From Burkholderia sp. USMB20 (GTDB taxonomy: Bacteria > Pseudomonadota > Gammaproteobacteria > Burkholderiales > Burkholderiaceae), in the NCBI RefSeq assembly GCF_000949135.2, contig NZ_JTAN02000014.1, positions 114,656 to 178,655 on the forward strand: DNA of 64,000 bases, read 5' to 3'. This document shows, one piece after another, positions 841-33,732 of the stretch (positions within the stretch are counted from its first letter, which is position 1; the number at the start of each line of letters is the position of its first letter). Below the pieces are notes generated by a model. The model did not search any database, was not told the origin of the DNA, and was given only the letters and a program-made list of their open reading frames with translations. Made by a program: the position numbers and the translations under genes.

Positions 841-936
841 TTGCACAGACCATGGCCAGCTACAACGCGGCGTGATTGACCGACAAAAGGAGGGAGATTA
901 GGCAATCTAAACTTTCGGCTCGCCACATAACACAAG

Positions 937-975: not shown

Positions 976-994
976 GTTTCCGAAGGGTAATGCG

Positions 995-1858: not shown

Positions 1859-2082
1859 CGCGGTGCCGTGCAGGGTCGGTCGACGGGCCTTAAACCGCAC
1901 CTTAACAGGCCGTGAACACGCGCACGCGCGACCGCGCATATCCATAAAAACCCAATGAAATCAATGGATTGCGATCGCGGGCGATGCTTGGGGGCGGGGG
2001 TATCGAAAGTTTTCGGGGAAAAACCGCGAAGACCGACCGCTCCCGCACGCGGGGATTTTTTACCCCTTTTGAGGATTTGTTA
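1859..2082. other. Gap before terminase genes (possible cos region)
   Basis: These 224 bases hold no gene. They contain G-rich tracts near 1980-2020 and the hairpin-like GGGGATTTTTTACCCC near 2061-2076. In HK97-like phages the cos site usually lies just upstream of the small terminase gene, so this is the best candidate cos region. No cohesive-end sequence can be named from the sequence alone. Confidence 0.35.
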
Positions 2083-2619
2083 ATGGCGTTAACAGCGAAA
2101 AAGCGCCTGTTTGCCGATGCCGTTATCGCCGGAAAGTCCAATAAGGATGCGGCTTTGGCGGCTGGCTACAGCGCTAAAACGGCTGCTCAGTCGGGGTCTC
2201 GCCTTGTTAAAGACCCCGATGTTAAAAGGTACCTCGCCAAGCGACGGGGGGAGGCGAAGGTGACCCCGGGTGATGTCCCTGATACCCCGGAGGCGGCGAA
2301 GGCGAAGGACGCGGCTAAGAGGGCTGCTGCTGCTGCGACTCGGGCGGCGAATGCTGCTGCGGCAGCAGGATTCAATCTCGATTCGCTGCTGACGTTCAAA
2401 GACCCGCGCGATTTTCTGCTGGCGACCATGAACGACGCGGAGACAGAACAGAAGCTACGCGTGCAGGCTGCGTCTGTGCTGATGCCCTACGTGCATGCGA
2501 AGAAGGGTGAGGGCGGGAAGAAGGATGCCCGTGACGAAGCGGCGAAAGCGGCGGCGTCGAAGTTCGGGGGCGCACCGCCAGCGCCGCGACTGGCGGCAAC
2601 TGGAGGGCGAAAGGTTTGA
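2083..2619 (+). CDS. Terminase small subunit
   Basis: The 178-aa product begins MALTAKKRLFADAVIAGKSN, followed by the helix-turn-helix-like DAALAAGYSAKTAAQSGSRL typical of the Terminase_2 family, which recognises the packaging site on phage DNA and recruits the large subunit. The middle is an alanine/lysine-rich coiled segment; the C-terminal part (FKDPRDFLLATMND...) fits the oligomerisation region. The ATG at 2083 follows GAGG by 8 bases; the frame extends upstream to 1969 without a ribosome binding site. The large subunit starts inside its stop codon. Confidence 0.85.
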   Translation: MALTAKKRLFADAVIAGKSNKDAALAAGYSAKTAAQSGSRLVKDPDVKRYLAKRRGEAKVTPGDVPDTPEAAKAKDAAKRAAAAATRAANAAAAAGFNLDSLLTFKDPRDFLLATMNDAETEQKLRVQAASVLMPYVHAKKGEGGKKDARDEAAKAAASKFGGAPPAPRLAATGGRKV

Positions 2620-21400: not shown

Positions 21401-24400
21401 ACTGCACGATCAGGTGTTCCCGTGGATGGCTGGCGATGACGGCGCGCTCGCGGGCAACGACGGTGCGCTGGCTGGTATCGTCACCGAACAGTCGATGCGT
21501 GAGGAAGCCGACTTTGCGCTCGGCCAGCGTATCGAGGGCGTCGGCGCGGCCCTGAATTCGCAGGGCGACGAAATCCGTGCGTCCGTGATGCAAGAAATGC
21601 AGGCGCGCGCCGATGGCGACATGGCGCAGGCAGAGCTTACGACCGCGCTCCGTGCCGACTTCAACGACAACGCGGCGGCGGTCTCGCAACAGCTTCAGGC
21701 GCAGGCAGACGCCACGAGAGCCGTCGCGTCCGACGTGTCAGCGCTCAAGACGAGCGTGGGTGATAACGCGGCGGCGATCAGCAACCTGTCGACGGCCAGC
21801 AGCGACGCTGACGCGGCACTCGCGCGCCAGATCACGAACCTGTCCACGAGCGCGGCGGCAGACATTGCAGCCGCTGTATCGACCGAACAGAAAGCCCGTG
21901 TCGACGGCGACGCCGCGAACGCGCAGGCGATCAGCACGCTTTCGACGTCGTTCAGCTCGAACGCGGCGGCGGTGCAGTCGCAGATTCAGGCGAACGCGGA
22001 CGCCAACAAGGCGACGGCTTCTGACGTGTCGGCGCTCAATACGAGCGTCAAGGACAACGCGGCGTCGATCAGCGCGCTATCGACGGCATCGTCGGAGGGC
22101 GATAAGGCGCTGGCAGCCTCTATTGCGGCCCTGTCGACCTCGACGGCCGACGGCCTTGGCGCGGCCATCAAGACGGAACAGCAGGCCCGTGTGGACGGCG
22201 ATAGTGCGAATGCGACGGCCATCAGCAGCCTTCAGTCGACGGTGAAGGACACGAACGCGGCGATCGCAACGTTGTCTACCGCGAGCGCGGACGCCGACAA
22301 GGCGCTGGCGCAGTCGATCGCGAACCTGTCCACGAGCACGAGCAAGGACATTGCAGCCGCCGTATCGACGGAAACGTCGGCGCGCATCGACGGCGACAAG
22401 GCGAATGCGGATGCAATCACGGCGCTGAACACGACTGTCAAGGACAACACTGCGGGGATCAGTGCGCTGTCGACTGCAAGCGCAGACGCTGACAAGGCGC
22501 TCGCGCAGTCGATCAGCGACCTGAAGACGCAGACCGGCAAGGACATTACTGCTGCTGTCGCCACGGAAGCAACGGCCCGCACGTCTGGAGACGCGGCCAA
22601 TGCGAAGTCGATCACCGACCTTACGACGAAGTTCAACGACAACGCGGCGTCGGTGCAGACCCAGATTCAGGCCGGCGCAGATGCAAACGCAGCGAACGCG
22701 AGCGCTATCTCGAAGCTGGGCGCGACGGTCGACGGCAACACCAGCGCGATCAACAGCCTGCAAAAGACGACCAGCGATGCAGACGCGGCGATGGCGCAGC
22801 AGATCGCGGGGCTGACGGCTCAGGTGAATCCGGCGATGGCCGGCGACGACGGCCCGATGTCGGGCAACGACAGCGCACTGGCCGGCGTCTATACGGAAGC
22901 CGACGCGCGCGCCGAAGCTGACATGGCGCTCGCCCAGAAGATCGAAAGCGTGCAGGCGACGCTGAGCGCTCAGGGCGATACGTTGAACGCTGCGGTGCAG
23001 TCGGAAACGCAGGCACGGACGGATGCTGACGGCGCGCTCGCGCAGTCGATCACGAGCCTGACCGCAAGTTTCAACGATAACGCGGCGTCGGTCGCACAGC
23101 AGCTTCAGGCACAGTCGGACGCAACGAGCGCTGTTGCGTCGTCGGTCACGAGCCTGACGACGGACGTAAAGGGCAACAAGGCCGCGATTTCCGACCTCGC
23201 GGCCGCCACGAGCGACGCTGATTCCGCGCTCGGCCAGCGCATCACCGACCTGTCGGTGTCGACGGCAGCGGACACGAAGGCGCAGATTGCGACGGAACAG
23301 AAGGCCCGCGTCGACGGTGACAGCGCGAACGCGGATGCGATCACGAGCCTGCGAGCCGACTACAACGCCAATAGCGCGTTGGTGCAGGAGCAGATCAATG
23401 TGGTGTCGGATAGCACGAGCGCCAATGCGCTGTCGATCACGAACCTGCAATCTAGCGTCAAGGACGCGAACGCAGCCATCAGCACGGAATCGAAGGCGCG
23501 CTCGGATGGCGACACCGCGAACGCGACGGCGATCACCAATCTGGCGACGAAGACCACAGCAGACATTGGGGCCGCGATCACGACGGAAGCGAAGGCGCGC
23601 AGCGATGCGGACACCGCGCTCACGCAGTCGATCACGAACCTATCGAGTACGGTCGACAAGAACGCGGCGACCGTGACGACGCTGCAAAAAACGGTGACGG
23701 ACGGTGACGCGGCGAACGCACAGGCGATCACCGACCTGCGGGCGCAGACGGCAACGGACATTTCGTCAGCCGTCAACACGGAGGCGACCGCGCGCGTATC
23801 CGGCGACAAGGTGAATGCGGACGCGATCACGACCCTGCAATCGTCGGTCAAGGACACGAGCGCAACGGTGCAGACGCAGGGCAAGACGCTTGCGGCGCTC
23901 GACGGGCAACTGTCGGCGTCCTATACGATCAAGGCGCAGGTCGTGAACGGGCAGACCTACGCTGCGTCGATGGCGCTCGGCGCCGATGGTTCGGGCAACA
24001 CGTCGATCCTGTTCTCTGCCTCTACGTTCGCTGTGATCGACCCGTCGTCGGGTAAGGTGTCGTCGCCGTTCGCGATCCAGAACGGGCAGGTGTTCATCGC
24101 GAACGGCTTCATCTCGAACGGGTACATCACGAATGCGATGCTCGGGGATGCGACTGTCACAACGGCCAAGATTGCGAACGGTTCTATCGACCAAGCACGA
24201 ATCCAGAACGGGGCGATCGGTAGCGCGCAGATTCAAGACGGCGCCATCAACACGGCGAAGATCGGGGACGCACAGATCAGCACTGCAAAAATCGGGGTGG
24301 CTCAGATTGATACGTTGCGGATCGCTGGAGGGGCGGTTACAACGGGCCAGTATTTCGAAGGCAACAGAACCATGTCGGGCAACTTCTGGTGCACTGGTGG

Positions 24401-24611
24401 CCCCGTCATGTTCGTGTATGGGGGATACAACTCATCGACGTTTACGCTGCTTATTGATGGTGGGGTGGTGGCAGTTCATCAGAACACGAATAACCCGGAA
24501 TACAGTATCTATAGCACTACGCTGGGCGCGGGTACGCATTCGTTTCAGTTGTCGATAGCTAACCCGCTCGGCGGGACTGTCCGGCTCACGGTGTACGAGT
24601 TCAAACGGTAA
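18471..24611 (+). CDS. Tail tip/host-specificity protein J, greatly enlarged
   Basis: The 2046-aa protein is the receptor-binding tip protein. After a ten-glycine run near residues 16-25 come conserved J segments (TLHSIATAKILDIVSEGP, NPAWIFRDLALHPRYGCGR). Fibronectin-like domains span about 620-830. Residues 860-1900 are a repetitive Ala/Ser/Asp-rich coiled region with two related modules starting near 978 and 1448 (WMAGDDGALAGND and AMAGDDGPMSGND). Then come GSIDQARIQNGAIGSAQIQ-type repeats and an 80-residue C-terminal domain, likely the receptor tip. It is much longer than lambda J (1132 aa). AGGAATACTAA precedes the start. Confidence 0.93.
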   Translation: MRDLAATSLTEIVGAGGGGGGGGGGVEAPDTLHSIATAKILDIVSEGPIVGPVDGLKSVVLGGTPIQNPDGSTNFQNFSVDWRLGTSDQTFLPGFQSVENEIAVGVALTSDVPWSKAVQNTQLTAVRVRFGVPAIETQDKSNGNINGYKIDYAIDIATDGGSFTQVLTNSFTGKAASLYERTERINLPASKAGWVVRVRRLTPNKHDSSIQDTVNIEALTEVIDRKLRYPNTALFGMQFDAKSFSSIPTRGYLVRGRIIAIPSNYDPETRTYFGTWDGTFKQGWTNNPAWIFRDLALHPRYGCGRSIDASVLDKWSLYEIAQYCDVMVPDGLGGMEPRFTCNAVIQSQADAFKVLQDVAGIFRGQAHWGAGAVVATADMPMEPARVYTQANVIDGKFNYSGTSRKSRYTVAQVSYNDKTNQFKQAVEYVQDDDGLARYGIIKASITAFGTTSQGQAHRLGLWAIHSSRLETQTVSFSVGLDGTMAAPGEVIAVADAKKAGRRIGGRIRGMSDLSTVVLDKAPVVKVGDDLTVIMPDGFAQKRAVSNINGDTIKVNPAFTDMGVSGAVWMVESDDLVSQLFRVISIAEESDNGQVVYTMNCAQHEPGKYALIDNGAQIKKRPITVIPPSVQPPPANVRITQNVVIDQGTAKTTMTVAWDAADKATSYLAKWRKDNGEWVSMPVTGALSLDVVGVYAGMYEAQVRAVNAMGVTSIPGMSQPTAIKGKTGAPPAVSLLTASQNQLFAIEINWGFPGNGSANDTQRTDIWQSRTPAFSDGVLQGSYAYPTSKAVLMGLAAGQAIYFWARLVDTSGNIGPWYPVETGAGVKGMSSADASPVLDLLAGQITDSQLGKDLLSKVDAIPALTDEVAALNSDVADLNTSIAQIPQIKSDVSGLQKNVSGLSTSVSSLSTAVTAIPGIQTDVKGLSTAVSSLSTSTAGIPGMSKQIQDNANAIAQLSTVDLPALNTSVADLDAHVSELHDQVFPWMAGDDGALAGNDGALAGIVTEQSMREEADFALGQRIEGVGAALNSQGDEIRASVMQEMQARADGDMAQAELTTALRADFNDNAAAVSQQLQAQADATRAVASDVSALKTSVGDNAAAISNLSTASSDADAALARQITNLSTSAAADIAAAVSTEQKARVDGDAANAQAISTLSTSFSSNAAAVQSQIQANADANKATASDVSALNTSVKDNAASISALSTASSEGDKALAASIAALSTSTADGLGAAIKTEQQARVDGDSANATAISSLQSTVKDTNAAIATLSTASADADKALAQSIANLSTSTSKDIAAAVSTETSARIDGDKANADAITALNTTVKDNTAGISALSTASADADKALAQSISDLKTQTGKDITAAVATEATARTSGDAANAKSITDLTTKFNDNAASVQTQIQAGADANAANASAISKLGATVDGNTSAINSLQKTTSDADAAMAQQIAGLTAQVNPAMAGDDGPMSGNDSALAGVYTEADARAEADMALAQKIESVQATLSAQGDTLNAAVQSETQARTDADGALAQSITSLTASFNDNAASVAQQLQAQSDATSAVASSVTSLTTDVKGNKAAISDLAAATSDADSALGQRITDLSVSTAADTKAQIATEQKARVDGDSANADAITSLRADYNANSALVQEQINVVSDSTSANALSITNLQSSVKDANAAISTESKARSDGDTANATAITNLATKTTADIGAAITTEAKARSDADTALTQSITNLSSTVDKNAATVTTLQKTVTDGDAANAQAITDLRAQTATDISSAVNTEATARVSGDKVNADAITTLQSSVKDTSATVQTQGKTLAALDGQLSASYTIKAQVVNGQTYAASMALGADGSGNTSILFSASTFAVIDPSSGKVSSPFAIQNGQVFIANGFISNGYITNAMLGDATVTTAKIANGSIDQARIQNGAIGSAQIQDGAINTAKIGDAQISTAKIGVAQIDTLRIAGGAVTTGQYFEGNRTMSGNFWCTGGPVMFVYGGYNSSTFTLLIDGGVVAVHQNTNNPEYSIYSTTLGAGTHSFQLSIANPLGGTVRLTVYEFKR

Positions 24612-24619
24612 AGGAGAGT

Positions 24620-25006
24620 ATGGAAGGAAACGTATATTTTGCGATTTATGAGGTCGAATCGGGCGCTATCTCGATGGTCGGGGGTGGCCCGCCCGGCATC
24701 GCTGGCATTCAATCTGTTCCGGCTGGGTTTGCGCTCATCGAGGTGCAGGCGAGCATCGCGACCGATTACGTGCTCGATGGTGTGGTAACGCCGCGACCGG
24801 CTAATCCGGCGACGATCGACGGCCTGACGCTTTCGAATCTCCCGGTGCCTTGCACGATCACGATTGACGGGCAGGAATACGCGTGCGACGAGGACACTGG
24901 TGAGCTGTCATTTACGCAGCCGGGGACGTATCAGGTGACGGTGCGCGCGTGGCCGCTGCTCGATGTGACATTTGAGGTGAGCGATGAAGATTCAGCACAG
25001 GGCTGA
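24620..25006 (+). CDS. Hypothetical tail-associated protein (128 aa)
   Basis: It begins 8 bases after J with the strong site AAAGGAGAGT before the ATG. The product has an N-terminal beta-rich half (GNVYFAIYEVESGAISM) and an Ig-like second half (CTITIDGQEYACDEDTGEL, GTYQVTVRAWPLLDV). The position after J suggests a tail fibre or fibre-assembly protein. The overlap with the next gene suggests they act together. The precise role is unknown. Confidence 0.65.
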   Translation: MEGNVYFAIYEVESGAISMVGGGPPGIAGIQSVPAGFALIEVQASIATDYVLDGVVTPRPANPATIDGLTLSNLPVPCTITIDGQEYACDEDTGELSFTQPGTYQVTVRAWPLLDVTFEVSDEDSAQG

Positions 25007-25169
25007 CTATCGGGCGCGACGGCGCGACGCTTACCCGGATATTGGCGATCAACTCGACGCCATTGCCAAAGCATTCGCGGCGCTACAGCAGGGTCAACCG
25101 CTTCCGCCTGACACAGTTGAATGGATCGATTCCCTTCAGGCGGTGAAGGAGCGACACAAGAAGGACTAG
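24984..25169 (+). CDS. Small hypothetical phage protein (61 aa)
   Basis: The ATG at 24,984 lies 23 bases before the end of the preceding gene and has GAGG at a good distance. The product (MKIQHRADYRARRRDAYPDI...) has a basic N-terminus, then YPDIGDQLDAIAKAFAALQQG, a pattern seen in small proteins coded after J-like genes or fibre genes in many phages. It may assist tail fibre assembly; no function is established here. Confidence 0.65.
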   Translation: MKIQHRADYRARRRDAYPDIGDQLDAIAKAFAALQQGQPLPPDTVEWIDSLQAVKERHKKD

Positions 25170-25262
25170 TCGTGATTGGCAGGTGCGCGGATTTGCGCCG
25201 CTACCTGCTACTATTTTCGGGCTTTAAGTAAGCATTACTAAGGAGTAAAGGGGCGGGGAAGT

Positions 25263-25490
25263 ATGAGATTAAGCGCGGGGGATGCGGTGAGCTATACGGG
25301 CGCGTTCGCGAGTTTCTGTGCATCGATCACGCTGGAAAAGGTTGGTGTGATGGTCGGCATTGCGACGGCGTTGGTGACTTGCGGCGTCAATTGGTATTTC
25401 AAATGGAGGCGAGCAAAGAGCGACGAGGCAGTAGCGGCGGCGCGCATTCGGGAGGCTCAAGCACACACGGGGGAGGAATATGGCGTCTAA
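25263..25490 (+). CDS. Holin
   Basis: The 75-aa protein has two hydrophobic segments (about residues 7-20 and 26-46), followed by a basic WRRAKSD and a charged C-terminal helix, as in class II phage holins of the HP1 type. It forms lesions in the inner membrane to trigger lysis. It lies directly before the endolysin and overlaps it by 11 bases. AAGGAG and GGGGAAG are upstream of the ATG. Confidence 0.8.
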   Translation: MRLSAGDAVSYTGAFASFCASITLEKVGVMVGIATALVTCGVNWYFKWRRAKSDEAVAAARIREAQAHTGEEYGV

Positions 25491-26016
25491 CGGGCGTAGC
25501 GGGTCGCTGGTGGCCTTGATTGGCGCGGTGGCTGCGGCGGCATGTATTTCGCTGACGGGTGGCTCTGAGGGCGTCAGTTTGACGCCGTACACGGACGCGA
25601 TTGGTTCGCGTGTCGAGACGGTATGTTACGGCGAAACAAATGTGCAGATGCGACGTTACACGCTGCCGGAATGCAAAGAGATGTTGGCGAAGTCGCTGGC
25701 TGGATATGCGGCGGCCGTCCGGGATTCGGTGCCGGGGTTCGATTCGCTCACAGACGGGCAGAAGGTTGCGGCCATCGATTACACATACAACAGAGGCGTT
25801 GGCGCATGGCGGCGCGCACCGCGTCGCGATGACCCCGCGCCTTCGATCCTGTCCGCGTACAAAGCGCGCAACTTTCCGGAAGCCTGCGAGCTGTACGAGA
25901 AGTGGGCTGTCGTGAGGCGAGGCGACAAATGGGTTGACTGCTCGATCCGGCGAAACGGGTGCTTCGGCATCTATACGCGTCGCCAGAAAGAGCGCGCAGC
26001 GTGTGAGGGGCGGTGA
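25480..26016 (+). CDS. SAR endolysin (lysozyme, GH24)
   Basis: The 178-aa muramidase starts with a weakly hydrophobic signal-anchor-release segment (LVALIGAVAAAACISLTGG), typical of P21-type endolysins exported by Sec and activated upon release. Catalytic residues are E30, D39 and T47 (SEGVSLTPYTD, ETVCYGET). The spacing D39-T47 is two residues longer than the usual D-x5-T. Further conserved parts are YTLPECKEML and GIYTRRQKERAAC. GGAGG precedes the ATG; the gene overlaps holin and Rz. Confidence 0.9.
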   Translation: MASNGRSGSLVALIGAVAAAACISLTGGSEGVSLTPYTDAIGSRVETVCYGETNVQMRRYTLPECKEMLAKSLAGYAAAVRDSVPGFDSLTDGQKVAAIDYTYNRGVGAWRRAPRRDDPAPSILSAYKARNFPEACELYEKWAVVRRGDKWVDCSIRRNGCFGIYTRRQKERAACEGR

Positions 26017-26498
26017 GCATGAAGGGATTCATTTTGACGGGCATCGCGGCCTGTCTTGTCGGGGCCTTGCTCGGCGGCTCGTATGTGTACGAGGAGAAGG
26101 CGCGCGAGATCGAGTCCATCAAGGCCGATGCTGCACGGGCGAAGGCCGATGCCGTCGCGGCGGCGCGGAATGAAGAACAGCGGCGCACAGCCGCACAAGC
26201 GGAGAATGCAAAGGATGCTGAGAAGCAAAGAACTGCTGCGGTGGGGGATGCCGTCGCTGCTCGCGCTACTGTTGATGGGTTGCAGCGTACCGTCGATCAA
26301 CTCGTATCCCGCGAGCGCGCCCGCGATTCCGCTGCTACCGGCGACGGCGCGGCAGGAGCCGACCCCGTCGTTTTGCTCGCCGACGTGTTCGGGGAATCTG
26401 TCGAGCGAAATGAAGCGCTGGCAAGCGCGCTTGACCGGGCAAGAATCGCCGGAAACGAGTGCGCAGCAGATTACGACGCGCTGACCGTCAGCCAATGA
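26013..26498 (+). CDS. Rz-like spanin, inner-membrane subunit (DUF2514)
   Basis: The 161-aa product has an N-terminal signal-anchor (GFILTGIAACLVGALLGGSYV) and a long periplasmic helix with DUF2514 features (KADAARAKADAVAAARNEEQRR). With the nested lipoprotein Rz1 it forms the spanin that disrupts the outer membrane. Translation starts at GTG in a GTGA overlap with the endolysin, or at the ATG at 26,019. Gene order holin-endolysin-Rz-Rz1 is canonical. Confidence 0.88.
   Translation: MSMKGFILTGIAACLVGALLGGSYVYEEKAREIESIKADAARAKADAVAAARNEEQRRTAAQAENAKDAEKQRTAAVGDAVAARATVDGLQRTVDQLVSRERARDSAATGDGAAGADPVVLLADVFGESVERNEALASALDRARIAGNECAADYDALTVSQ
26215..26484 (+). CDS. Rz1-like spanin lipoprotein, nested in Rz
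   Basis: This frame lies wholly inside Rz in the +1 frame. The 89-aa product has a short signal peptide with the lipobox LLMGC (C23) followed by a proline-rich stretch (SVPSINSYPASAPAIPLLPA), as expected for Rz1. The ATG at 26,215 has GGAG 10 bases upstream; other in-frame ATGs at 26,206 and 26,248 are possible. The mature lipoprotein would sit in the outer membrane and contact Rz. Confidence 0.82.
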   Translation: MLRSKELLRWGMPSLLALLLMGCSVPSINSYPASAPAIPLLPATARQEPTPSFCSPTCSGNLSSEMKRWQARLTGQESPETSAQQITTR

Positions 26499-26501
26499 AG
26501 C

Positions 26502-26527
26502 GAAGCCCGCATAGAGCGGGCTTCTTT
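26502..26527 (+). terminator. Terminator after lysis cassette
   Basis: The 9-bp perfect stem GAAGCCCGC / GCGGGCTTC with loop ATAGA is followed by TTT. It ends the late operon immediately after Rz and separates it from the accessory genes. Confidence 0.85.
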
Positions 26528-26701
26528 GCGGACTTCGTAGACGTCCTTGGATGCCGGTTTGCCGCCTAAAGCGGCCGGGGGCATGTTCGGGAGGCAATTA
26601 TCGGCACGTCTACGACGCGCCGTGGTTCATAGATTCATCACCTACAGTTTCAGAGTCATGTTTCGCGAGCGTTTACACATCATCGATGTTCCGCGCTCGA
26701 A

Positions 26702-26707
26702 TATAAT
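26702..26707 (+). promoter_or_regulatory. Candidate -10 box of accessory-gene promoter
   Basis: A perfect TATAAT in an otherwise GC-rich genome lies 51 bases upstream of the next start codon and downstream of the lysis terminator. No convincing -35 box is seen at the optimal distance (TTTACA at 26,672 is too far), so the promoter could be weak or activator-dependent. Independent transcription of the accessory region from here would fit expression in the lysogen. Confidence 0.4.
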
Positions 26708-26758
26708 TTCTCCGGACGCAAGTAGTCAGTCAATAATGCATATGAGTGAGACCTACGC

Positions 26759-27487
26759 ATGGAAAGCAAGACCAAGCTAGCGACGTTTGCTGTGGCGTAC
26801 GGCCTGTGTATCGCAACTTGCTACCTGTGGACGTACTGGGGCGCGTTTGGCATCAATGTGTTCGAGTATGCGAGCTTCAGCGACGTGGCGACTAGGGCGA
26901 TTCTTCCGGTGGCGGCCGCGTTTGTGCCTTTGGCTGTCGGCTCTGGTATTGCAGAAATCTCTCCATTAAGGCAAGTATTCCCAGCCGGCGGTGGGCGAGA
27001 CACCCGCGTGGGTGTCTTCGTGAACAATCACACGCGCCTTCTATCCGGACTCAGCATAATCGTGGGGGGCGCCGTCCTCGGGCTATCGAATAGCCCATTG
27101 CGCTGGCTGTTAGCAACGCCATTCTTTTTGCCGTTGGTGATGGCACTCGAATCTCATCCGCTAATGGCCGATCTCCTCCCGGATGGAAAGGTGCGAAGCG
27201 TGCTGATACCGTTGGGGATATTGGCTCTTTTTGCCGCAGCGGCAAGTGGGGCACTAAGCGCCGAGCAAATCCTACGCGGTAAAAGTGATCGCGTGGTCGA
27301 CGAGTCAACCGTAAGAGTTCCCCTCAAGGCAACGGAAGCCCACCCGGTCGAATACATTGGCTACGTGGGGGGCACGTACTTCCTGTACGAAACGCAAACG
27401 CGAAGCGTGGTTATCTTAAAGCAGACCGATCACGACGCTATCGTATTGAAGCCTAAAATCGTATCGGACGCACAAACGTCAGACTGA
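26759..27487 (+). CDS. Multi-pass membrane protein of unknown function
   Basis: The 242-aa product has about five hydrophobic segments (residues 7-27, 47-68, 93-110, 112-130 and 145-168), with YWGAFGINVFEYASFSDV after the first. The C-terminal 70 residues form a soluble beta-rich domain (VEYIGYVGGTYFLYETQ, RSVVILKQTDHDAIVLK). I recall similar uncharacterised membrane proteins but no function. It lies after the lysis terminator and upstream of a HEPN-type gene, 23 bases apart, so both may be one operon. Role as a superinfection-exclusion or effector protein is only inference. Confidence 0.7.
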   Translation: MESKTKLATFAVAYGLCIATCYLWTYWGAFGINVFEYASFSDVATRAILPVAAAFVPLAVGSGIAEISPLRQVFPAGGGRDTRVGVFVNNHTRLLSGLSIIVGGAVLGLSNSPLRWLLATPFFLPLVMALESHPLMADLLPDGKVRSVLIPLGILALFAAAASGALSAEQILRGKSDRVVDESTVRVPLKATEAHPVEYIGYVGGTYFLYETQTRSVVILKQTDHDAIVLKPKIVSDAQTSD

Positions 27488-27510
27488 AAGATTAATCGGG
27501 GGCTACAGAA

Positions 27511-28767
27511 ATGAACGTAATGATGTCGGTCGTCTGCGACACTTGTGAGGTCCAGACCAACCTTCGTGTTGGAATGTCGAATCGAGACGTCCAGCCATTT
27601 CGCTTTTGCTGTCCGTCGTGCGGCTCACCGATTGACTTCACGCTTGGCGAGAGACCCGGCGAGGGTAAGGATCTAGCCGGCGCCCACGAAATTCCAGCGG
27701 ACGGGCCTTTCGATGATGCGACGCACTTTGTCGACCTGCATCTGGATTTTCCAGTTAAGTTTGGCAAGTATATCATGGGCCATACGCCATTCATGATGGC
27801 GCTTCAGCAAATTGGCGCCGAAAGATTTCAGCTTCATAACGAGAGGCTGAACGAGTTGAATTTGGTCTATAAGGTGCAGGCCGAAATACGGAACCTGATA
27901 AGGTTGTACTCCGGCAAGGACAAGCAGCTTTTCACGGGCAAGGTCGAGAAGTTCCTGAAAACGAAACTCAAATCGAGCCGTCCGCAAGATATCAATGCAG
28001 GGTTGTACCTTCTTGTGTCGTTCGCCTTCAAACCGTTCGTGAATATTCACAGCGTGAAGGAGGTGGCTGAGGGCTATCCGAATTTTCTGATGTATCTTTC
28101 CGGCAAGGATAAGGCGAAGATCGACGGCTTTATTGATCACTTGGTCGACACTGGTTTTTTGCGTAACGTTCAGCTTGACGGGCTTGAACTTTACCCGGCG
28201 ATTCTCGACGCAGAGTTGGCTCTGCGCCCCGCGCTGATGCTTGATTTTGACGACACGTACCAACCCGGTGGTTTGTCGCCGGCTCGGGTTTCTACCGATA
28301 AGTTCAACCAGTACAAGGATTTATACAAGGACGTTGCGGAGGTCATCAACCGTCAGTTGGTGATCGTCGCAGGCTTAAACAATCTGCTGCATCGCGGTGG
28401 CTATGATTCATTTCCTGACCTTGGGCCGAAGAGAAGGGCGCCGAAGTCGTTGCACGAGTATGCAGATGTGTCGCTCGGCGCGAAGCCCGAATGGCTAGAC
28501 AATTGTTGGTTCTTCTTCGATAAGGATGCAGTCGACAACCAGTTGCGCAACGCAATAGCACATTACAAGGCGGAGTATGACGAGACAACGCAACTCATCA
28601 CGTATTACCCAAAGCTGGAGGGTATGGAGCAAGAGAAGGCACAGACGATGTACTTTCTCGATTTCATGCGTAAGCTGCTCTGCGCTTTTCGAGAGATGAA
28701 CTACTTGCATCACCTTGTCAAATCAATCTATTTCTACAGAATTTTGATTCAAAAGAAGGGCGATTGA
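27511..28767 (+). CDS. Zinc-ribbon protein with C-terminal HEPN-type motif
   Basis: The 418-aa protein begins with a zinc ribbon (C9-x2-C12, and C34-x2-C37). A central helical part (residues 100-330) follows. Near the C-terminus the motif RNAIAH (R346, H351) in a helical setting fits the Rx4H signature of HEPN RNases, many of which act in toxin-antitoxin and abortive infection systems. I cannot assign a named family. The gene is 23 bases downstream of the membrane protein. The HEPN call rests on one motif and predicted helicity. Confidence 0.65.
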   Translation: MNVMMSVVCDTCEVQTNLRVGMSNRDVQPFRFCCPSCGSPIDFTLGERPGEGKDLAGAHEIPADGPFDDATHFVDLHLDFPVKFGKYIMGHTPFMMALQQIGAERFQLHNERLNELNLVYKVQAEIRNLIRLYSGKDKQLFTGKVEKFLKTKLKSSRPQDINAGLYLLVSFAFKPFVNIHSVKEVAEGYPNFLMYLSGKDKAKIDGFIDHLVDTGFLRNVQLDGLELYPAILDAELALRPALMLDFDDTYQPGGLSPARVSTDKFNQYKDLYKDVAEVINRQLVIVAGLNNLLHRGGYDSFPDLGPKRRAPKSLHEYADVSLGAKPEWLDNCWFFFDKDAVDNQLRNAIAHYKAEYDETTQLITYYPKLEGMEQEKAQTMYFLDFMRKLLCAFREMNYLHHLVKSIYFYRILIQKKGD

Positions 28768-28920
28768 GCTGGATGTGGAAAACAATCAAGTGCCTTGAAT
28801 AAAATGCGATCTAGATAGATACTTGCCAATTTTTACATTATTACGGTAGGGCGTAGGAGCTCGTGTAAGGCAGTCTATCAACCGCTTGGTTTTTGTCTCC
28901 AAAACGCAGGGTTTTAATTC

Positions 28921-29649
28921 ATGCCATTAAGTTCAAATACTCTTACACACTTCACTCGGGAAAAAGAAGCGCTTTTCGGCATTCTTGAAGGGTACTTCAA
29001 GGTTTTTTTCTGCAAGGAAGTTGTTCGTTTGACGCAGGGAAAGCGTTGGAGCTTTTATGCTCCAATGGTTAGCTTTTGCGACATTCCAATGTCTGAAATC
29101 AAAGATCACATCAGAAAGTATGGTTCGTATGGAATCGGGTTAACAAAGGAATGGGCCATGCGAAATGGGTTAAATCCCGTGCTTTACGTTGCTCCTAACT
29201 CGTTGCTCTCTGCGAGTTATAGGAATGCAATGCGCGATTCATTAGATGCGCCGGAGGGTGGCGCGGTGGGGTTGGCATTTCTGGATGTTTTGCGGTATAT
29301 GAAAAACTACGAAGGCCCTTTGGAGCGTAAAGTCGAGACCCTCGAGAATTACAGATTTTCGGACGAGCGGGAGTGGAGGTATTCGCCGCCGCGTTCTGAT
29401 AACAAGCGAGTAATTGTTTCGGTACCTAAATACGAAGAAAAACCGGAAGAATTTTATGGCATGTATAGTGATTGCCGGCTCGAATTTTCGCCCAATGATA
29501 TAAAATATATTATCATAAATGACGACTCTGAAATAAGGGAGGTGATAAATCATTTGCGCGATGCAAACGGGAGAAAGCACTCGCTTGATGAAATTGAGCG
29601 CCTTACGAGTAGAATTTTAACGACCGAGCAGATAAAAGGGGACTTCTGA
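28921..29649 (+). CDS. AbiGi-like (abortive phage resistance) protein
   Basis: The 242-aa product matches my memory of the AbiGi family (formerly a DUF, Pfam AbiGi): NTLTHFTREKEALFGILEGYF, MVSFCDIPMSEIKDHIRKYGSYGIGL, and a late DEREWRY. AbiGi was described as the antitoxin half of the lactococcal AbiG pair; no AbiGii toxin is adjacent here. The HFT...IL..G and DEREWR features also recall ADP-ribosyltransferase-like proteins. It is clearly richer in AT than its surroundings, indicating recent acquisition. It is preceded by 150 AT-rich bases that may hold its promoter. Confidence 0.75.
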   Translation: MPLSSNTLTHFTREKEALFGILEGYFKVFFCKEVVRLTQGKRWSFYAPMVSFCDIPMSEIKDHIRKYGSYGIGLTKEWAMRNGLNPVLYVAPNSLLSASYRNAMRDSLDAPEGGAVGLAFLDVLRYMKNYEGPLERKVETLENYRFSDEREWRYSPPRSDNKRVIVSVPKYEEKPEEFYGMYSDCRLEFSPNDIKYIIINDDSEIREVINHLRDANGRKHSLDEIERLTSRILTTEQIKGDF

Positions 29650-30008
29650 TAGTAACTTGTGCCAGCGCTGTATTTGAAGCAGTGCGGCCTATTACTACGA
29701 TTGAGATGCGGCTTTGCGTGGGGTGCCGTGCCAGCAAAGCCATCCTGTAACCCATGCATCGACGTTCCTAAGCATCCCCTGTTCAAGGCTCGCCACTTCC
29801 GCCTCCGGCTGGCGAGCGACATCCCGGGTGTCTACTCGGAACCGTTCTTGCGGCAGTCGCGGGTAACATCGACCACGCCCGCGTCGAACTCCACCGGACC
29901 GTCGTTCGCTGAACCTATAGCGAGGGTGAAGTGGGATGCTATATGTCGGATAATAAAGTGGATGCGATAGACAAAAGGCGGGGTGCGCGGTCGTGCACGC
30001 GTCGCTGG
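29650..30008. other. Gap with no convincing gene
   Basis: This 359-base stretch between the AbiGi-like gene and the minus-strand gene has open frames on both strands, but none has a ribosome binding site, recognisable domain or plausible codon use. It may be a remnant of a lost gene. GC returns to the phage average here. Confidence 0.45.
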
Positions 30009-30341
30009 TCACCGCGTCTTCGGGCGCGATGCCTTGAGGGCAGCGGCACGCTGACGCCGACGCTCGGCGCGCTTCGTCAACCACTCGACGATCCGGCCGT
30101 GTCGCGCGACGGCGTTTTCGTATCCATAGGTGTTGGCGGTTCGATACACGTGGCCCGGTTCAAACACATAGTGAACGAAAGGCGGCTCCGCGCCATCGCT
30201 TGCATAGCCGAGGAAAATCGTCCAGACGCGCGTGTTCTCTGCAACGGTCGTGTCTCCGATATCTTGATCCTCGTGCTTGCAACGCGTCTCTAGGTCGACC
30301 TCGACGGGTTCGTGCTGGTCGTTCAATATGTAATGGGGCAC
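30009..30341 (-). CDS. Conserved-type hypothetical phage protein (110 aa)
   Basis: The probable start is the GTG at 30,341 (MVPHYILNDQHEPVEVDLET). The product has TRVWTIFLGYASDG and PFVHYVFEPGHVYRTANTYG, then a basic C-terminus (WLTKRAERRRQRAAALKAS). Similar small proteins of the form 'H/YYI.N..HEPV.VD....W' with 'V.T.FLG' occur in many phages, judged from memory, with no known role. It runs opposite to all neighbours, so it has its own promoter, in the gap 30,342-30,508. Confidence 0.65.
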   Translation of the reverse strand: MPHYILNDQHEPVEVDLETRCKHEDQDIGDTTVAENTRVWTIFLGYASDGAEPPFVHYVFEPGHVYRTANTYGYENAVARHGRIVEWLTKRAERRRQRAAALKASRPKTR

Positions 30342-30508
30342 GATACACTCAGAACGCTGTATGGATATACAGTTTATCGCGGGGTACGATGGTGCCGTCA
30401 ACTCGAAAAACTGGGGCACGACTGGCGTCTGCGGAAGGAGGGGCGCAGGCCCCGATGAGCATCAAGTGGTGCGATACAGGCGCTGTGTCAACGGCAGACG
30501 GGGCGAAC

Positions 30509-31033
30509 ATGAAAAGGTCAATTCTTGCCGTGCTGATTGCTACGGTATCAATGTACGCTTCGGCGTTTGACGTCGACGGCTTCCGGACTGGCATGAGCGT
30601 GAACGAAGTGGCTACGATCGTGCGCGGGCAGGGCTGGGAGCTTGGCGCGAACAAGATGATTGCTGGCCTGTATACGGAGGCCCACTATGGCGCGGACGGT
30701 AAGGTAGCCGAGCTTGGTCCTGAGAATTTCTCATTCTGCAATGGCCGGCTTATCGCATACTCCCGGGAACTGGACTTCGATACGGAGTATGTGTCGCAGC
30801 TGCGCGAAATGATCGCAAGATACGGAAGTCAGCCGATGGTTGAAGTTAGGCAACAGACATGGAGTGGCCCGGGTGGTGGCTATATCTCTAGCGTTGCGAC
30901 TAAGTGGTCCGTCGGCCGCGAACGTGTCGAAATATCATTCATACCAGAGGGGCGTACCGGCAATGGGGCGCTGAAGAACTATCGAGGCGCGCACATATCC
31001 TACGTTTTCCCCGGGCAGTGCCCCGCGCATTGA
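30509..31033 (+). CDS. Secreted/periplasmic hypothetical protein
   Basis: The 174-aa product begins with a Sec signal peptide (MKRSILAVLIATVSMYASA, cleavage before FDV). The mature part has FRTGMSVNEVATIVRGQGW, like the SmpA/OmlA-type or DUF-like 'G-M-s--eV---l' pattern of periplasmic proteins, then ELGPENFSFCNGRLIAYSREL. A start at 30,455 would place 18 more residues before the signal peptide and is less likely. Exported phage-encoded proteins may alter the envelope of the lysogen. Function unknown. Confidence 0.65.
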   Translation: MKRSILAVLIATVSMYASAFDVDGFRTGMSVNEVATIVRGQGWELGANKMIAGLYTEAHYGADGKVAELGPENFSFCNGRLIAYSRELDFDTEYVSQLREMIARYGSQPMVEVRQQTWSGPGGGYISSVATKWSVGRERVEISFIPEGRTGNGALKNYRGAHISYVFPGQCPAH

Positions 31034-31062
31034 GTGATGGGACAACGTGGAGGGAGTGGGCC

Positions 31063-31740
31063 GTGTGCACGAATTACGTCGCGCCGGGCGAGGATGCTGG
31101 TCTGAGCGAACTGAAGATCAACAGCTTCATCGACCTGTACCGCTGGACGCCGTGGAAGCCGGAAATATATCAAGACTATGCGGCTCCCATCGTCGCAAGT
31201 GTCGAGGGGCAATTCAAACCGCTGATTGCAGGGTTCGGATTCTGGCCGCGCGCATTGCAGAAAGCCAATTTCGAGAAGGCGAAAGCCCAAGGGCGTAAGC
31301 CGCCGATAATGCGCTCGACAATGAATGTGCGCGACGACAACATCGGGAAGTCGCCGTTATACGCGCCTGCATGGCGCGCGGGGCGTCGCTGCCTGATTCC
31401 TGCCGCCTGGATTTATGAGCCGAATTGGGAGACGGGCAAGCATATCCGCTATCGGATCGGCCTCGCCGGATGGCGGCCGTTGTGCGTCGCCGGCATCTGG
31501 CGAACGCTCGCGTATGAGGACGGCTCCGAGCATCACACGATGGCGATGATTACGGTCAATGCCGATGAGCACCCGATCATGAAACACATGCACCGACCCG
31601 GCGACGAGAAACGCTCGGTCGTAATCCTGCGGCCGGAAGATTGGGAGGAATGGCTGACGACGACGAATGTTGAAGCCGCCCGCGCGATGCTACAGCTATA
31701 TCCGGCGGATGACATGGCTGCTGAGCCTGCAATTTCTTGA
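31063..31740 (+). CDS. SRAP domain protein (YedK/HMCES-like)
   Basis: The 225-aa protein is an SOS-response-associated peptidase-type (SRAP) protein, which forms a covalent link with abasic sites in single-stranded DNA. The catalytic Cys2 follows the start Met; N88 (RSTMNVR), E119 (WIYEPN) and H175 (KHMHRP) match the known active-site set. GTG start at 31,063 with GGAGGGAG upstream is forced by the need for Cys at position 2. Phage copies probably protect replicating DNA or counter base excision. Intact. Confidence 0.92.
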   Translation: MCTNYVAPGEDAGLSELKINSFIDLYRWTPWKPEIYQDYAAPIVASVEGQFKPLIAGFGFWPRALQKANFEKAKAQGRKPPIMRSTMNVRDDNIGKSPLYAPAWRAGRRCLIPAAWIYEPNWETGKHIRYRIGLAGWRPLCVAGIWRTLAYEDGSEHHTMAMITVNADEHPIMKHMHRPGDEKRSVVILRPEDWEEWLTTTNVEAARAMLQLYPADDMAAEPAIS

Positions 31741-31795
31741 TAGCCGGCGATGTTGCTATCCACGCCACCACAATAATTCCGGAGGAGGTCAATGC

Positions 31796-32308
31796 ATGTT
31801 TGAACAGTTGCTGCCGATAGATTCTGATCTGGTGACCGGCTTTATGGGGGTTTTCTCGCGCTACGAATATGCGTTGAAGAATTCCGGTTTCGCAAACGGT
31901 GGCGAAGAGGAGGTAAGGCCGAACTGGGATGCATTCGCCCGAGACATCGCTGACGAATTTGACAGGCTCGACAAGCCCCGTTTTCGCGAGGCTGTCGACT
32001 ATCTCGTGACATCCCCGCCGCGAAAGCAAGTGCTTATCGGTCAGAGGTTGGAGTGGAAAGAATCCCCGCCCAATGGGGCGGCCCGCGTTTCGAGTCAAGC
32101 CTTGCTGATGGTCAGGCGAGTGAGAAATAACCTCTGCCACGGGGGGAAGTACTGGATACCGGACGATGAACGCAGAGGCCGTAACGAAAAGTTGGTGAAG
32201 GCTTCGCTCGCGGTTCTGCTTGCTTGTTTGCCGTTGAATGCTGATGTGCGCGACACATTCGGCCCACTCTTTGACGACGCAGACCGTCTGTGCCGGCTGG
32301 CGGCATAG
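31796..32308 (+). CDS. Small HEPN-type protein (RNNLCH motif)
   Basis: The 170-aa protein contains VRNNLCHGGKYW (R110, H115), a form of the HEPN Rx4H signature in which RNN-L-H-GGK is strongly conserved in a group of HEPN proteins linked to mobile elements. The rest is helical (ALLMVRRV before the motif, ASLAVLLACLPL after). GGAGG precedes the ATG. It may be an RNase toxin or abortive infection effector; no obvious antitoxin (MNT nucleotidyltransferase) gene is adjacent. Lies 55 bases after the SRAP gene. Confidence 0.7.
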   Translation: MFEQLLPIDSDLVTGFMGVFSRYEYALKNSGFANGGEEEVRPNWDAFARDIADEFDRLDKPRFREAVDYLVTSPPRKQVLIGQRLEWKESPPNGAARVSSQALLMVRRVRNNLCHGGKYWIPDDERRGRNEKLVKASLAVLLACLPLNADVRDTFGPLFDDADRLCRLAA

Positions 32309-32542
32309 GCACAGCATGACGTAGTCGTTCGCTGCGCGCTAGCTCCGAAGTGGCGGTGACCGAGGGGCGGCGCACCTACAGGTCGAGCGACTGCTTCTGG
32401 CGGATCGCGGCCGGCTGCTGACCTGCAACGCGCGACCGGCGCAGATTGACCCGAAGCGGCCGGTCACGTTGACCCGTAGCGGACGATCCGGTTTCTCCGG
32501 CAATAATGGTAGATTAGGCTATCGCCTATAAAGGGGGCCTGC
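32309..32542. other. Intergenic region with short repeats
   Basis: No gene is seen. Two near-identical 14-mers, TTGACCCGAAGCGG (32,446-32,459) and TTGACCCGTAGCGG (32,469-32,482), lie 9 bases apart. They resemble fragments of dispersed intergenic repeats. A promoter for the next gene is probably here, but no clear boxes stand out. Confidence 0.45.
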
Positions 32543-33511
32543 ATGGCAGTCCGTCGACTCGAAGATATTCAGCGTGAGGCAATCGGCGCAAGGTCGCGCC
32601 TCTCTATTCAGCGCTGGGAAACAATGCAGTTTGACGTGCAATTGAGGATGGCTTCGCTTAAAAACCTCATTGGCTCTGCTGAAAACGACGAGATTCATCG
32701 TCATGTCGTGGTCGCTTTGATTGCTGCGTTGCAAACCTACTTTCGCGGAACAATTGTTGCCATCACTGACTCTGGTGACGACTATCGCGAGCGAGCAGCG
32801 GAACGCATCACCGAAAAAATTTCGATGAAGGATGCATTGACATGGTTCAGCGGCAAGTCAGTGACGTTCGGGGAGCTTGTAGCGCATGTCGCCTCTTGCA
32901 ATTCGGCGACCGACGTCATGTCGTGGCTAGGCTCGCTGCTGAACTGCAACTTTAGAGACGCCTTAGCGAGTTCGGTCTCCGAGTACGATCAACGTAACGG
33001 GAAGGTGGATCCGCCGCTGATTGTGTCCGACGTTGAGAAGCTGCTCTCTGAACTCAGCGAAACCTTCAGGTTGCGACATATCCTTGCACATGAAGCCGCG
33101 ACTAGTTTGCAAATAGATGCTGACGCCTGCAGAACTATGTGGAATGCAGTGCAGACGTTGCTTCGCGGCACTAACGCTGTGTTGTGGGCGACGGTCTATA
33201 AGAAACTCCCGTTGACGCAGGCTGAAATGACAAAACACGCCTATGCAGACGTTCTAGAGGCGAGGAAGGAGTTAGCCGAAATACTGAGGCACGCGCGAAA
33301 TCTTGCCTGTCGTGATGGTGCGTCCGCATGGCTTCGAGCAACTCACTTTGCTTGGATGAAGGTTATGGCGGATTGGTACAGGAATACATATTGGAAGCTT
33401 CAAGGATCAATGTGGCCGGCAGTCTCCGAGGCAGATCGTGCTGCGGCTATTCGTAGCCGCGTGAAGCAGATTTCGCAATGGGTCCAATGGCAGCAACCAG
33501 AGCGACCCTGA
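32543..33511 (+). CDS. HEPN-type protein (RHILAH motif), 322 aa
   Basis: The middle of this protein has FRLRHILAHEA (R178, H183), a classic HEPN Rx4H motif with His after Arg. The N-terminal 150 residues include a second helical block. The C-terminal part (ACRDGASAWLRATHFAW, GSMWPAVSEADRAAAIRSRVKQ) recalls a LprI/DUF1311-like region, a weak resemblance only. GGGGGCC precedes the ATG. It is the last gene of the prophage, next to attR, a frequent site for defence or virulence genes. HEPN identity is by motif only. Confidence 0.7.
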   Translation: MAVRRLEDIQREAIGARSRLSIQRWETMQFDVQLRMASLKNLIGSAENDEIHRHVVVALIAALQTYFRGTIVAITDSGDDYRERAAERITEKISMKDALTWFSGKSVTFGELVAHVASCNSATDVMSWLGSLLNCNFRDALASSVSEYDQRNGKVDPPLIVSDVEKLLSELSETFRLRHILAHEAATSLQIDADACRTMWNAVQTLLRGTNAVLWATVYKKLPLTQAEMTKHAYADVLEARKELAEILRHARNLACRDGASAWLRATHFAWMKVMADWYRNTYWKLQGSMWPAVSEADRAAAIRSRVKQISQWVQWQQPERP

Positions 33512-33560
33512 CGCTGCATCGATTGTCGACCATTCGAAAGCAATGTCGAACGGCCGCTCC

Positions 33561-33612
33561 TGGCCGAACTGAGTCAGACGATCTGACGCTGTCTGTTTGG
33601 TTTAGTCCAGCC
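33561..33612 (+). repeat. 52-bp imperfect direct repeat, right copy
   Basis: Partner of 789-840 (47 of 52 identical, same orientation). It lies between the last prophage gene and attR. The two copies enclose the late and accessory genes, which could allow recombination, though divergence makes this unlikely. Confidence 0.7.
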
Positions 33613-33674
33613 TCATACGAATTTTCGCCCCCATTTATCTCCCATGATGCTATGAAATCCTTTATTTATAGGGG

Positions 33675-33699
33675 TGTTCGAGTCCGGCCTCACGCACCA
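33675..33699 (+). other. Candidate attR: 3' end of a tRNA gene
   Basis: The sequence TGTTCGAGTCCGGCC begins like a tRNA T-arm: TTCGAGT (33,677-33,683) is a T-loop, CCGGC the T-stem 3' side, CTCACGC the acceptor strand, A the discriminator and CCA the end (33,697-33,699). No complete tRNA precedes it, as the 5' side of the T-stem does not pair. This fits phage integration into a tRNA 3' end, the intact tRNA then lying at attL left of the window. Confidence 0.65.
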
Positions 33700-33732
33700 C
33701 GAAGTCGAACGGGCTCCGCCCAAGGGCCGTTC

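What the first reader, a model, noticed from the sequence alone, without database searches (positions are those of the whole stretch)
26528..33511. Accessory prophage region with three HEPN-motif proteins, an AbiGi-like protein and SRAP
Between the lysis terminator (26,502-26,527) and attR lie eight non-structural genes. Three unrelated proteins carry HEPN Rx4H motifs (RNAIAH at R346, RNNLCH at R110, RHILAH at R178), one matches AbiGi, one is a SRAP protein and one a multi-pass membrane protein. That is a compact set of likely nucleic-acid-active or abortive-infection proteins. Such moron clusters in prophages often defend the lysogen. The defence role is inferred from motif and position only; the genes may be independent units rather than one system.
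Basis: partly seen in the sequence, partly recalled or inferred. Interest (0 to 1): 0.8.

Follow-up and report, generated by a model that had tools for sequence, protein, structure and literature searches.

The report
Prophage cargo hotspot with HEPN genes
The right end of this dormant bacterial virus carries a swappable set of passenger genes, three of which look like separate RNA-cutting toxins that probably stop rival viruses, sitting at a spot where related viruses carry different passengers.

Summary
A tailed prophage ends in eight genes before an attR made of the 3' end of tRNA-Leu(TAG). The Rx4H motif is invariant in the sequences found for p2 (7 of 7), p7 (8 of 8) and p8 (3 of 3), while a chance Rx4H in AbiGi is kept in 2 of 6. 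Two p8 relatives pass Pfam's HEPN_RiboL-PSP cut-off. p2 has four invariant cysteines plus a HEPN-like part and matches only an unnamed PHROG; a 75% relative lies between a type I restriction/PrrC cluster and Tn7-like genes. The set is not one system: no genome in our searches held two of p1, p2, p3, p7, p8. It is cargo in a hotspot: 50 of 80 SRAP-bearing phage loci have an Rz match, 0.3-6 kb from SRAP, with 41 distinct intervals, and six show the layout without insertion, which places insertions here at about 26,486-30,026 and 30,417-31,063. Most likely the HEPN genes are independent lysogen-protecting RNases.

The parts
26013..26498 (+). Rz-like spanin, left anchor of the hotspot
   Evidence: phrog_312 3.3e-34; Rz matches in 50 of 80 SRAP loci
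26486..30026 (.). insertion 1, between Rz and p4 (approximate limits; carries p1-p2-p3)
   Evidence: Rz abuts p4 in L044, L061, L063, L108, L106 and L053 (Rz match with p4 match)
26759..27487 (+). p1: hydrophobic, probably multi-pass membrane protein (by eye), 242 aa
   Evidence: no convincing family hit; relatives in 5 of 299 family genomes, one after an Rz-like ORF by eye (L032), one overlapping a SRAP-like ORF (L035)
27511..28767 (+). p2: N-terminal CxxC...CxxC (C9 C12 C34 C37) plus C-terminal HEPN-like region (E277xxxR281, R346NAIAH351), 418 aa
   Evidence: phrog_13366 6.7e-155, unknown function; residues invariant in 7 of 7
28921..29649 (+). p3: AbiGi-family protein, 242 aa, 44% G+C
   Evidence: PF10899 3e-29, PADLOC AbiGi 4.9e-43; G+C
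30009..30419 (-). p4: small backbone ORF between Rz and SRAP
   Evidence: 67-75% DNA identity over 376-406 bp, directly upstream of SRAP, in 7 of the 10 loci compared; 17 of 80 loci have a p4 protein match, ten of them short
30417..31063 (.). insertion 2, between p4 and SRAP (carries p5)
   Evidence: p4 and SRAP matches are 7 bp apart in L044, L061, L063, L108, L106 and 2 bp apart in L053
30509..31033 (+). p5: protein of unknown function, signal-peptide-like start (by eye), 174 aa
   Evidence: 80% identical in L118, also directly before SRAP
31063..31740 (+). SRAP protein, 225 aa, GTG start, Cys2
   Evidence: PF02586 5.1e-23; phrog_1599 2.2e-54; PDB 1zn6 8.2e-23, YedK about 5e-4
31796..32308 (+). 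p7: compact HEPN-motif protein, 170 aa (R110NNLCH115)
   Evidence: phrog_19013 4.6e-27; RNNLxHG in 8 of 8; follows SRAP in L118 too
32543..33511 (+). p8: HEPN_RiboL-PSP-related protein, 322 aa (R178HILAH183; Q64 where relatives have E)
   Evidence: relatives in L037 and L038 pass the PF18735 cut-off; motif in 3 of 3
33676..33711 (+). attR: 3' end of tRNA-Leu(TAG) plus downstream bases, 36 bp
   Evidence: exact match to L124, where ARAGORN finds the intact tRNA

Best explanation
The region is the right-end cargo hotspot of a lambda-like tailed prophage (the host looks like Burkholderia, which is my inference). The phage backbone there is Rz - p4 - SRAP - attR. Accessory genes have been inserted between Rz and p4 (p1, p2, AbiGi), between p4 and SRAP (p5) and after SRAP (p7, p8). 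Shown: the insertions before SRAP, the variable contents of the site in relatives, and conservation of the HEPN catalytic motif. Inferred: p2, p7 and p8 are three separate single-gene HEPN RNases made in the lysogen; each is held inactive until a rival phage is sensed, then cuts RNA and stops the cell or the intruder, as the prophage HEPN protein Tha does. p2 would sense through its zinc-ribbon-like and middle parts. AbiGi is a further abortive-infection unit of unknown chemistry. SRAP, by family knowledge (recalled), crosslinks abasic sites in single-stranded DNA and would serve the phage's own DNA care.
For: Hotspot: Rz found in 50 of 80 SRAP loci, gap 294-6065 bp, 41 distinct intervals; uninserted Rz-p4-SRAP layout in six loci. 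Cargo in relatives: D12 methylase (11 of 126 ORFs), HNH (2), type IV-type restriction match (2, perhaps the same ORFs) before SRAP; after SRAP, among 82 of the 107 ORFs found, OLD/Gabija-like AAA (3), HNH_2 (3), SMODS (1), RelA_SpoT (1), PIN (1), DndB (1). HEPN: motif invariant in the p2, p7 and p8 sets; p2 also has invariant E277xxxR281 and p7 ExxxK in 6 of 7 (alignment), a second signature described for many HEPN families (PMC3710099, passages); p8 relatives over the PF18735 cut-off. Context of p2: a 75% relative next to HsdM/PrrC/HsdR, with TnsA, TniB and TniQ proteins about 5-9 kb away; another beside a TIR/SEFIR protein (L008); another near an HNH protein (L007); another in a viral contig (L003). 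Independence: no genome in two hit lists. G+C of p1, p2, p3, p5, p7, p8 is 44-57% against about 63% for the tail and lysis genes.
Against: No structure could be predicted. p2 and p7 match no HEPN model, and profile-profile comparison did not connect them to HEPN sets, though it also failed on the positive control p8. The Ex3[KR] signature is weak: AbiGi, which is no HEPN candidate, also has an invariant ExxxR (149-153), and p2 has a second one (235-239). p8 lacks the acidic residue its relatives have. Only two relatives support p8; two of the seven p7 relatives are a fragment (L136) or come from a match with a stop (L137). No phenotype is known. PADLOC recognises only AbiGi among the eight. 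Two of six p2 relatives (L006, L040) have no defence neighbour visible by eye, and two L003 neighbours had no PADLOC hit. Hotspot contents include non-defence cargo. In one E. coli and one Klebsiella phage viewed, p7 relatives lie among structural-region genes. Promoter-like sites are as frequent as in shuffles (7 against 5.0).
Confidence: 0.6

Rival explanations
1. The HEPN proteins are addiction or toxin-antitoxin modules that keep the prophage in the cell, with no role against other phages.
For: HEPN toxins are described next to nucleotidyltransferase partners and other mobile-element contexts (passages); p7 is a compact 170-aa protein; AbiGi is labelled 'antitoxin' in Pfam.
Against: No nucleotidyltransferase or other antitoxin model hit among the eight proteins; the p2 relatives have varied, not constant, neighbours; p2 is large, with a sensor-like N-terminal part.
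Confidence: 0.15
2. p1 and p2 form one two-gene unit (membrane protein plus HEPN RNase), comparable to the HEPN-transmembrane system named in the Tha paper.
For: p1 and p2 are 23 bp apart on one strand with a GGGGG run before p2; a HEPN-TM system is named in PMC11087260 (passage).
Against: None of six p2 relatives has p1 in its locus, and none of the four p1 relatives recovered has p2 (ORFs of 80 aa or more; a fifth p1 relative lies at a contig end).
Confidence: 0.12
3. The genes are lysogenic-conversion or phage-life-cycle genes unrelated to defence; the Rx4H motifs are structural or coincidental.
For: Hotspot relatives hold PAAR, DUF4123, Tox-REase-5, Imm52, a family 35 glycosidase and a hydrolase; p7 relatives lie among structural-region genes in the two enterobacterial phages viewed; bare Rx4H is frequent by chance.
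Against: Motif conserved at R, polar residue and H in all three sets; a Pfam HEPN hit for p8 relatives; p2 relatives near restriction, PrrC and TIR genes in some loci.
Confidence: 0.2
4. All eight genes act as one defence system.
For: They are contiguous in the window and lie at one prophage end.
Against: No co-occurrence of the cargo genes in the searches made, except p5-SRAP-p7 in L118; p4 and SRAP are backbone; p4 is on the opposite strand.
Confidence: 0.03

Closest known systems
Tha (prophage HEPN anti-phage protein of Staphylococcus aureus, PMC11087260)
   Same: Prophage-borne HEPN protein with RNxxxH (R265NSIMH270) in its C-terminal part, as in p2 (passages).
   Different: No sequence comparison with Tha was made; p2 has an N-terminal zinc-ribbon-like part and lies after the lysis genes; no regulator was identified; no activity shown.
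Ribo L-PSP-HEPN family (PF18735; PMC3710099 Table 1, passages)
   Same: p8's two relatives exceed the Pfam cut-off over the region that aligns to p8; RHxxxH kept.
   Different: p8 itself does not reach the model; Q64 replaces the E of its relatives; no endoRNase L-PSP hit in p8.
AbiG (AbiGi/AbiGii) of Lactococcus
   Same: p3 belongs to the AbiGi protein family.
   Different: No AbiGii among the eight proteins; far below NCBIfam's AbiGI equivalog cut-off (56 of 300 bits); the five relatives have varied neighbours.
P2/P4 antiviral hotspots (PMC9122126) and Burkholderia siphophage moron hotspots (PMC2920897)
   Same: Small high-turnover loci between conserved phage genes holding defence-like genes (passages).
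   Different: Different anchors here (Rz and SRAP); no activity tested.

Membership tests
HEPN superfamily (p2) | Conserved Rx4-6H with a polar residue after R | tested here: met
   R346 N347 H351 in 7 of 7
HEPN superfamily (p2) | Second conserved acidic residue in Ex3[KR] upstream | tested here: met
   E277/R281 in 7 of 7; but AbiGi also has an invariant ExxxR, so the feature is not specific
HEPN superfamily (p2) | Match to a curated HEPN model | tested here: not met
   and three relatives; so it is called HEPN-like, not filed in a named family
HEPN superfamily (p2, p7, p8) | Helical fold with the motif at the end of helix 3 | not testable with these tools
HEPN superfamily (p7) | Conserved Rx4H with polar residue | tested here: met
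   RNNLxH in 8 of 8
HEPN superfamily (p7) | Ex3[KR] upstream | tested here: inconclusive
   E in 7 of 7 and K in 6 of 7 of the sequences with letters there (alignment)
HEPN superfamily (p7) | Match to a curated HEPN model | tested here: not met
HEPN_RiboL-PSP PF18735 (p8) | Score over the Pfam cut-off | tested here: inconclusive
   p8 itself no hit; relatives 39.1 and 28.5 bits against cut-off 28.4
HEPN_RiboL-PSP PF18735 (p8) | Rx4H conserved | tested here: met
   3 of 3
AbiGi PF10899 (p3) | Score over the Pfam cut-off | tested here: met
   102.8 bits against 22.4
AbiG two-gene system | AbiGii partner beside AbiGi | tested here: not met
   no AbiGii among the eight proteins in Pfam or PADLOC
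SRAP PF02586 | Score over the cut-off, and Cys at position 2 | tested here: met
   82.2 bits against 27.1; GTG start before a Cys codon; role of Cys2 recalled
Prophage defence hotspot | Variable cargo between two conserved phage genes, with empty sites | tested here: met
Prophage defence hotspot | Cargo shown to block phages | not testable with these tools
   needs plaque assays

The most novel reading that the evidence does not exclude
p2 founds an undescribed family of single-gene immune RNases, an N-terminal four-cysteine zinc ribbon joined to a C-terminal HEPN domain, moved between prophages and Tn7-like defence-carrying transposons, in which the zinc-ribbon part recognises an intruder and unleashes RNA cutting.
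Probability: 0.3. Interest if true: 0.62.

Novelty: new member of a known kind. Interest (0 to 1): 0.47.

Why it matters
If right, Rz and SRAP become anchors for finding defence candidates in a large group of phages (one scan gave 80 loci on 79 contigs), and p2 gives a rare, well-delimited HEPN-like family that is small enough to test as a single gene.

Tried and rejected
One joint system: rejected for lack of co-occurrence. p1-p2 as a fixed pair: disfavoured. Rx4H in AbiGi (R206) as a fourth HEPN: rejected, kept in 2 of 6 only. AbiGi as an ADP-ribosyltransferase-like enzyme: a guess from its HFT...ExEWR pattern; no support in the literature searches (one paper listed, not opened; no AbiGi in the paper; none) and no PDB relative by sequence.

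Profile-profile comparison of p2, p7 and p8 with small DUF4145 and RiboL-PSP sets gave nothing, but the positive control p8 failed too, so the test had no power. Searches of the phage collection by DNA for the region and by protein for p2, p3 and p8 found nothing (the tool warns that near records may be left out), and 5 records for p7. Viral-contig scans found no relative for p8 or p7, although L118, from the same collection, holds a p7 relative, so that scan misses known cases. Promoter scan: 7 found against 5.0 expected, uninformative; terminator-like sites 15 against 7.5, many inside genes.

Limits of counts: ORFs in the hotspot survey were picked by length without a gene caller, so some are spurious; A2 took all 126 interval ORFs of the 41 representatives, A3 took 82 of 107 post-SRAP ORFs; the tallies give family counts, not which ORF, and only the first 25 of 30 Pfam and of 274 PADLOC families were shown for A3. 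The 80 SRAP loci lie on 79 contigs (L107 and L108 share one). The 30 loci without an Rz match may have diverged Rz genes or be cut. Of 4 genomes with p2 matches, three give only short pieces (54 aa, 59 aa with a stop, and 133 aa at a contig end). p2 was sought in 65 genus and 398 phylum genomes, p1, p3 and p8 in 299 and p7 in 200 family genomes, so absence of overlap is not a full co-occurrence test.

On review I lowered the main confidence from 0.62 to 0.60, because the Ex3[KR] signature also appears in AbiGi.
Full report
What is there. The window's left half is the right part of a tailed prophage: terminase large subunit, portal, major head protein, tape measure, J-like tail fibre, holin, endolysin and Rz-like spanin are recognised. 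A phage record, G002 (by length and content the IMG/VR record UViG_2630968861), is identical to the window over the two stretches I compared (19,511-30,341 and 1-4,342, both 100%) and continues leftward to an integrase. To the right, chromosomal DNA shared with the nearest held genome begins at about 33,738. Just before it, from 33,676, lie 36 bases identical to the 3' end of tRNA-Leu(TAG) and its flank in that genome, where the tRNA is intact. So the finding's attR is real. attL was not seen.

The eight genes. p1 is hydrophobic and unclassified. p2 (418 aa) matches phrog_13366, of unknown function, over its whole length and nothing else convincingly. p3 is AbiGi. p4 is a small reverse-strand ORF. 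p5 has no convincing family. SRAP begins at a GTG at 31,063, which puts Cys at position 2 (the role of Cys2 in SRAP chemistry is recalled). p7 (170 aa) is phrog_19013. p8 (322 aa) has no convincing family hit of its own. G+C is 44-57% for p1, p2, p3, p5, p7 and p8, against about 63% for the tail and lysis genes.

Are the motifs more than chance? The bare Rx4H is not rare: shuffled p2 and p8 show one in 44% and 51% of cases, p7 in 10%. With the polar second residue the rates are 8%, 7% and 1.4%, and 2 of 10 other proteins of the window also have one. The main evidence is conservation. In p2 and six relatives (43-75% identical), R346, N347 and H351 never change, nor do E277 and R281, nor C9, C12, C34 and C37. 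In p7 and seven relatives R, N and H never change; one of the seven is a fragment (L136) and one comes from a match with a stop (L137). In p8 and two relatives R178, H179 and H183 never change. The Rx4H of AbiGi, by contrast, is kept in 2 of 6. The published HEPN description names Rx4-6H with a polar residue after R, and often Ex3[KR] (PMC3710099, passages). p2 meets both, p7 the first and mostly the second, and p8 the first, with Q64 in place of the acidic residue. The second feature is not specific, since AbiGi also has an invariant ExxxR. Both p8 relatives pass Pfam's HEPN_RiboL-PSP cut-off (39.1 and 28.5 bits against 28.4). For p2 and p7 no model matches and no fold could be computed, so HEPN is likely but not proven.

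One system or many? Searches of held genomes found relatives of p2 in 0 of 65 (genus) and 4 of 398 (phylum), p8 in 2 of 299, p3 in 5 of 299, p1 in 5 of 299 and p7 in 4 of 200. No genome appears in two of these lists, though the lists do not cover the same genomes. Among the loci read, the six p2 relatives have no p1 or AbiGi beside them. An exception to independence is L118, a metagenomic phage contig that has p5-SRAP-p7 in the same order as the window (72% over 1,764 bases), followed by a PIN-domain protein. On balance the genes are separate units.

The site. SRAP is the common neighbour. An AbiGi relative lies just before SRAP, and about 0.8 kb after an Rz-like ORF, in L031; a p1 relative overlaps a SRAP-like ORF in L035; a p8 relative lies about 1.9 kb from a short SRAP-like ORF in L037 (the Rz identity in L031 is by eye). 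A scan for SRAP gave 89 related stretches, of which 80 were kept, on 79 contigs. In 50 of the 80 loci an Rz match is present, with a gap to SRAP of 294 to 6,065 bases; by shared 21-letter words these 50 intervals fall into 41 distinct sets. In L044, L061, L063, L108 and L106 Rz abuts p4 and p4 lies 7 bases before SRAP; L053 has the same order, with Rz reaching p4 by the protein match. Against these, the window carries about 3.5 kb (p1-p2-p3) between Rz and p4, and 647 bases (p5) between p4 and SRAP. p7 and p8 follow SRAP. p4 and SRAP therefore belong to the backbone.

What the site holds elsewhere. Of 126 interval ORFs, 11 match D12 adenine methylase, 6 Tox-REase-5, 6 Imm52, 5 DUF4123, 2 PAAR, 2 HNH, and single ones IS66 parts, a family 35 glycosidase and an alpha/beta hydrolase; PADLOC adds two type IV-type restriction matches. 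Of 82 post-SRAP ORFs scanned (of 107), 5 match integrases, 5 recombinases, 3 OLD- or Gabija-like AAA proteins, 3 HNH_2, 2 TsiV, and single ones SMODS, RelA_SpoT, FRG, PIN and DndB. The hotspot thus carries defence-like genes, but also interbacterial effector-type genes and other passengers, and position alone cannot prove defence.

Context of p2. A 75% identical relative in a groundwater Burkholderiales MAG (L005) lies between a metallophosphatase/AAA pair (by eye) and a type I restriction cluster with HsdM, PrrC and HsdR; TnsA-, TniB- and TniQ-type proteins lie about 5 to 9 kb away. Another relative lies beside a TIR/SEFIR protein (L008), one near an HNH protein (L007), one in a viral contig (L003). 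L006 and L040 show no defence neighbour by eye, and two L003 neighbours had no PADLOC hit. This is circumstantial support for a defence role.

How it likely works. By analogy with Tha, a staphylococcal prophage HEPN RNase switched on by tail proteins of incoming phages (PMC11087260, passages), p2, p7 and p8 would each be a dormant RNase in the lysogen that cuts RNA when a rival phage is sensed. RNase activity is inferred from the motif; sensing and protection are inferred by analogy. AbiGi stands without AbiGii; in a screen of cloned lactococcal Abi genes in E. coli, abiGi included, only AbiEii inhibited growth (PMC3985639, passages), so Pfam's label 'antitoxin' is not settled by that test.

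What is known. Moron hotspots in Burkholderia phages, including abortive-infection and restriction morons, were described in 2010 (PMC2920897, passages), and antiviral hotspots in P2 and P4 in 2022 (PMC9122126, passages). I did not see the Rz-SRAP site, or p2 as a zinc-ribbon HEPN, in the listings of searches of an open-access library; only the top papers of each were listed, so that is no proof of absence. The finding is a new member of a known kind, with p2 as its most original part.

Noticed in passing
L027:5323-7934: A close AbiGi relative (79% identical) sits 38 bp downstream of a reverse transcriptase matching PADLOC Drt6 (2.1e-113) and Drt4, a possible RT-AbiGi pair.
   Followed up: partly
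Rz-SRAP intervals of the 41 representative loci: Some phage loci carry Tox-REase-5 (6 ORFs), Imm52 (6), DUF4123 (5) and PAAR (2), that is interbacterial effector and immunity-type genes, in the same hotspot (which locus holds which ORF was not resolved).
   Followed up: no
L028:2443-6128: AbiGi relative downstream, on the same strand, of a 680-aa AAA-type protein matching PADLOC PDC-M36A (2.2e-20).
   Followed up: no
L029:5649-6670: AbiGi relative preceded at 38 bp by an 80-aa HTH protein, a possible regulator pair.
   Followed up: no
L118:8363-9832: After p5-SRAP-p7 comes a 489-aa PIN_8 protein (5.1e-60), another likely RNase in the same hotspot.
   Followed up: partly
L033:1530-6499: A p1 relative lies about 1 kb downstream of a phospholipase-type effector match and a weak TIR-type effector match.
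   Followed up: no
33543-33618: A stretch of about 75 bases between p8 and attR matches many places in genomes of the genus at about 76-95% identity, a dispersed repeat.
   Followed up: no
32543-33511: p8 has Q64 where its two relatives have the glutamate of the HEPN Ex3R motif; activity may be altered.
   Followed up: no
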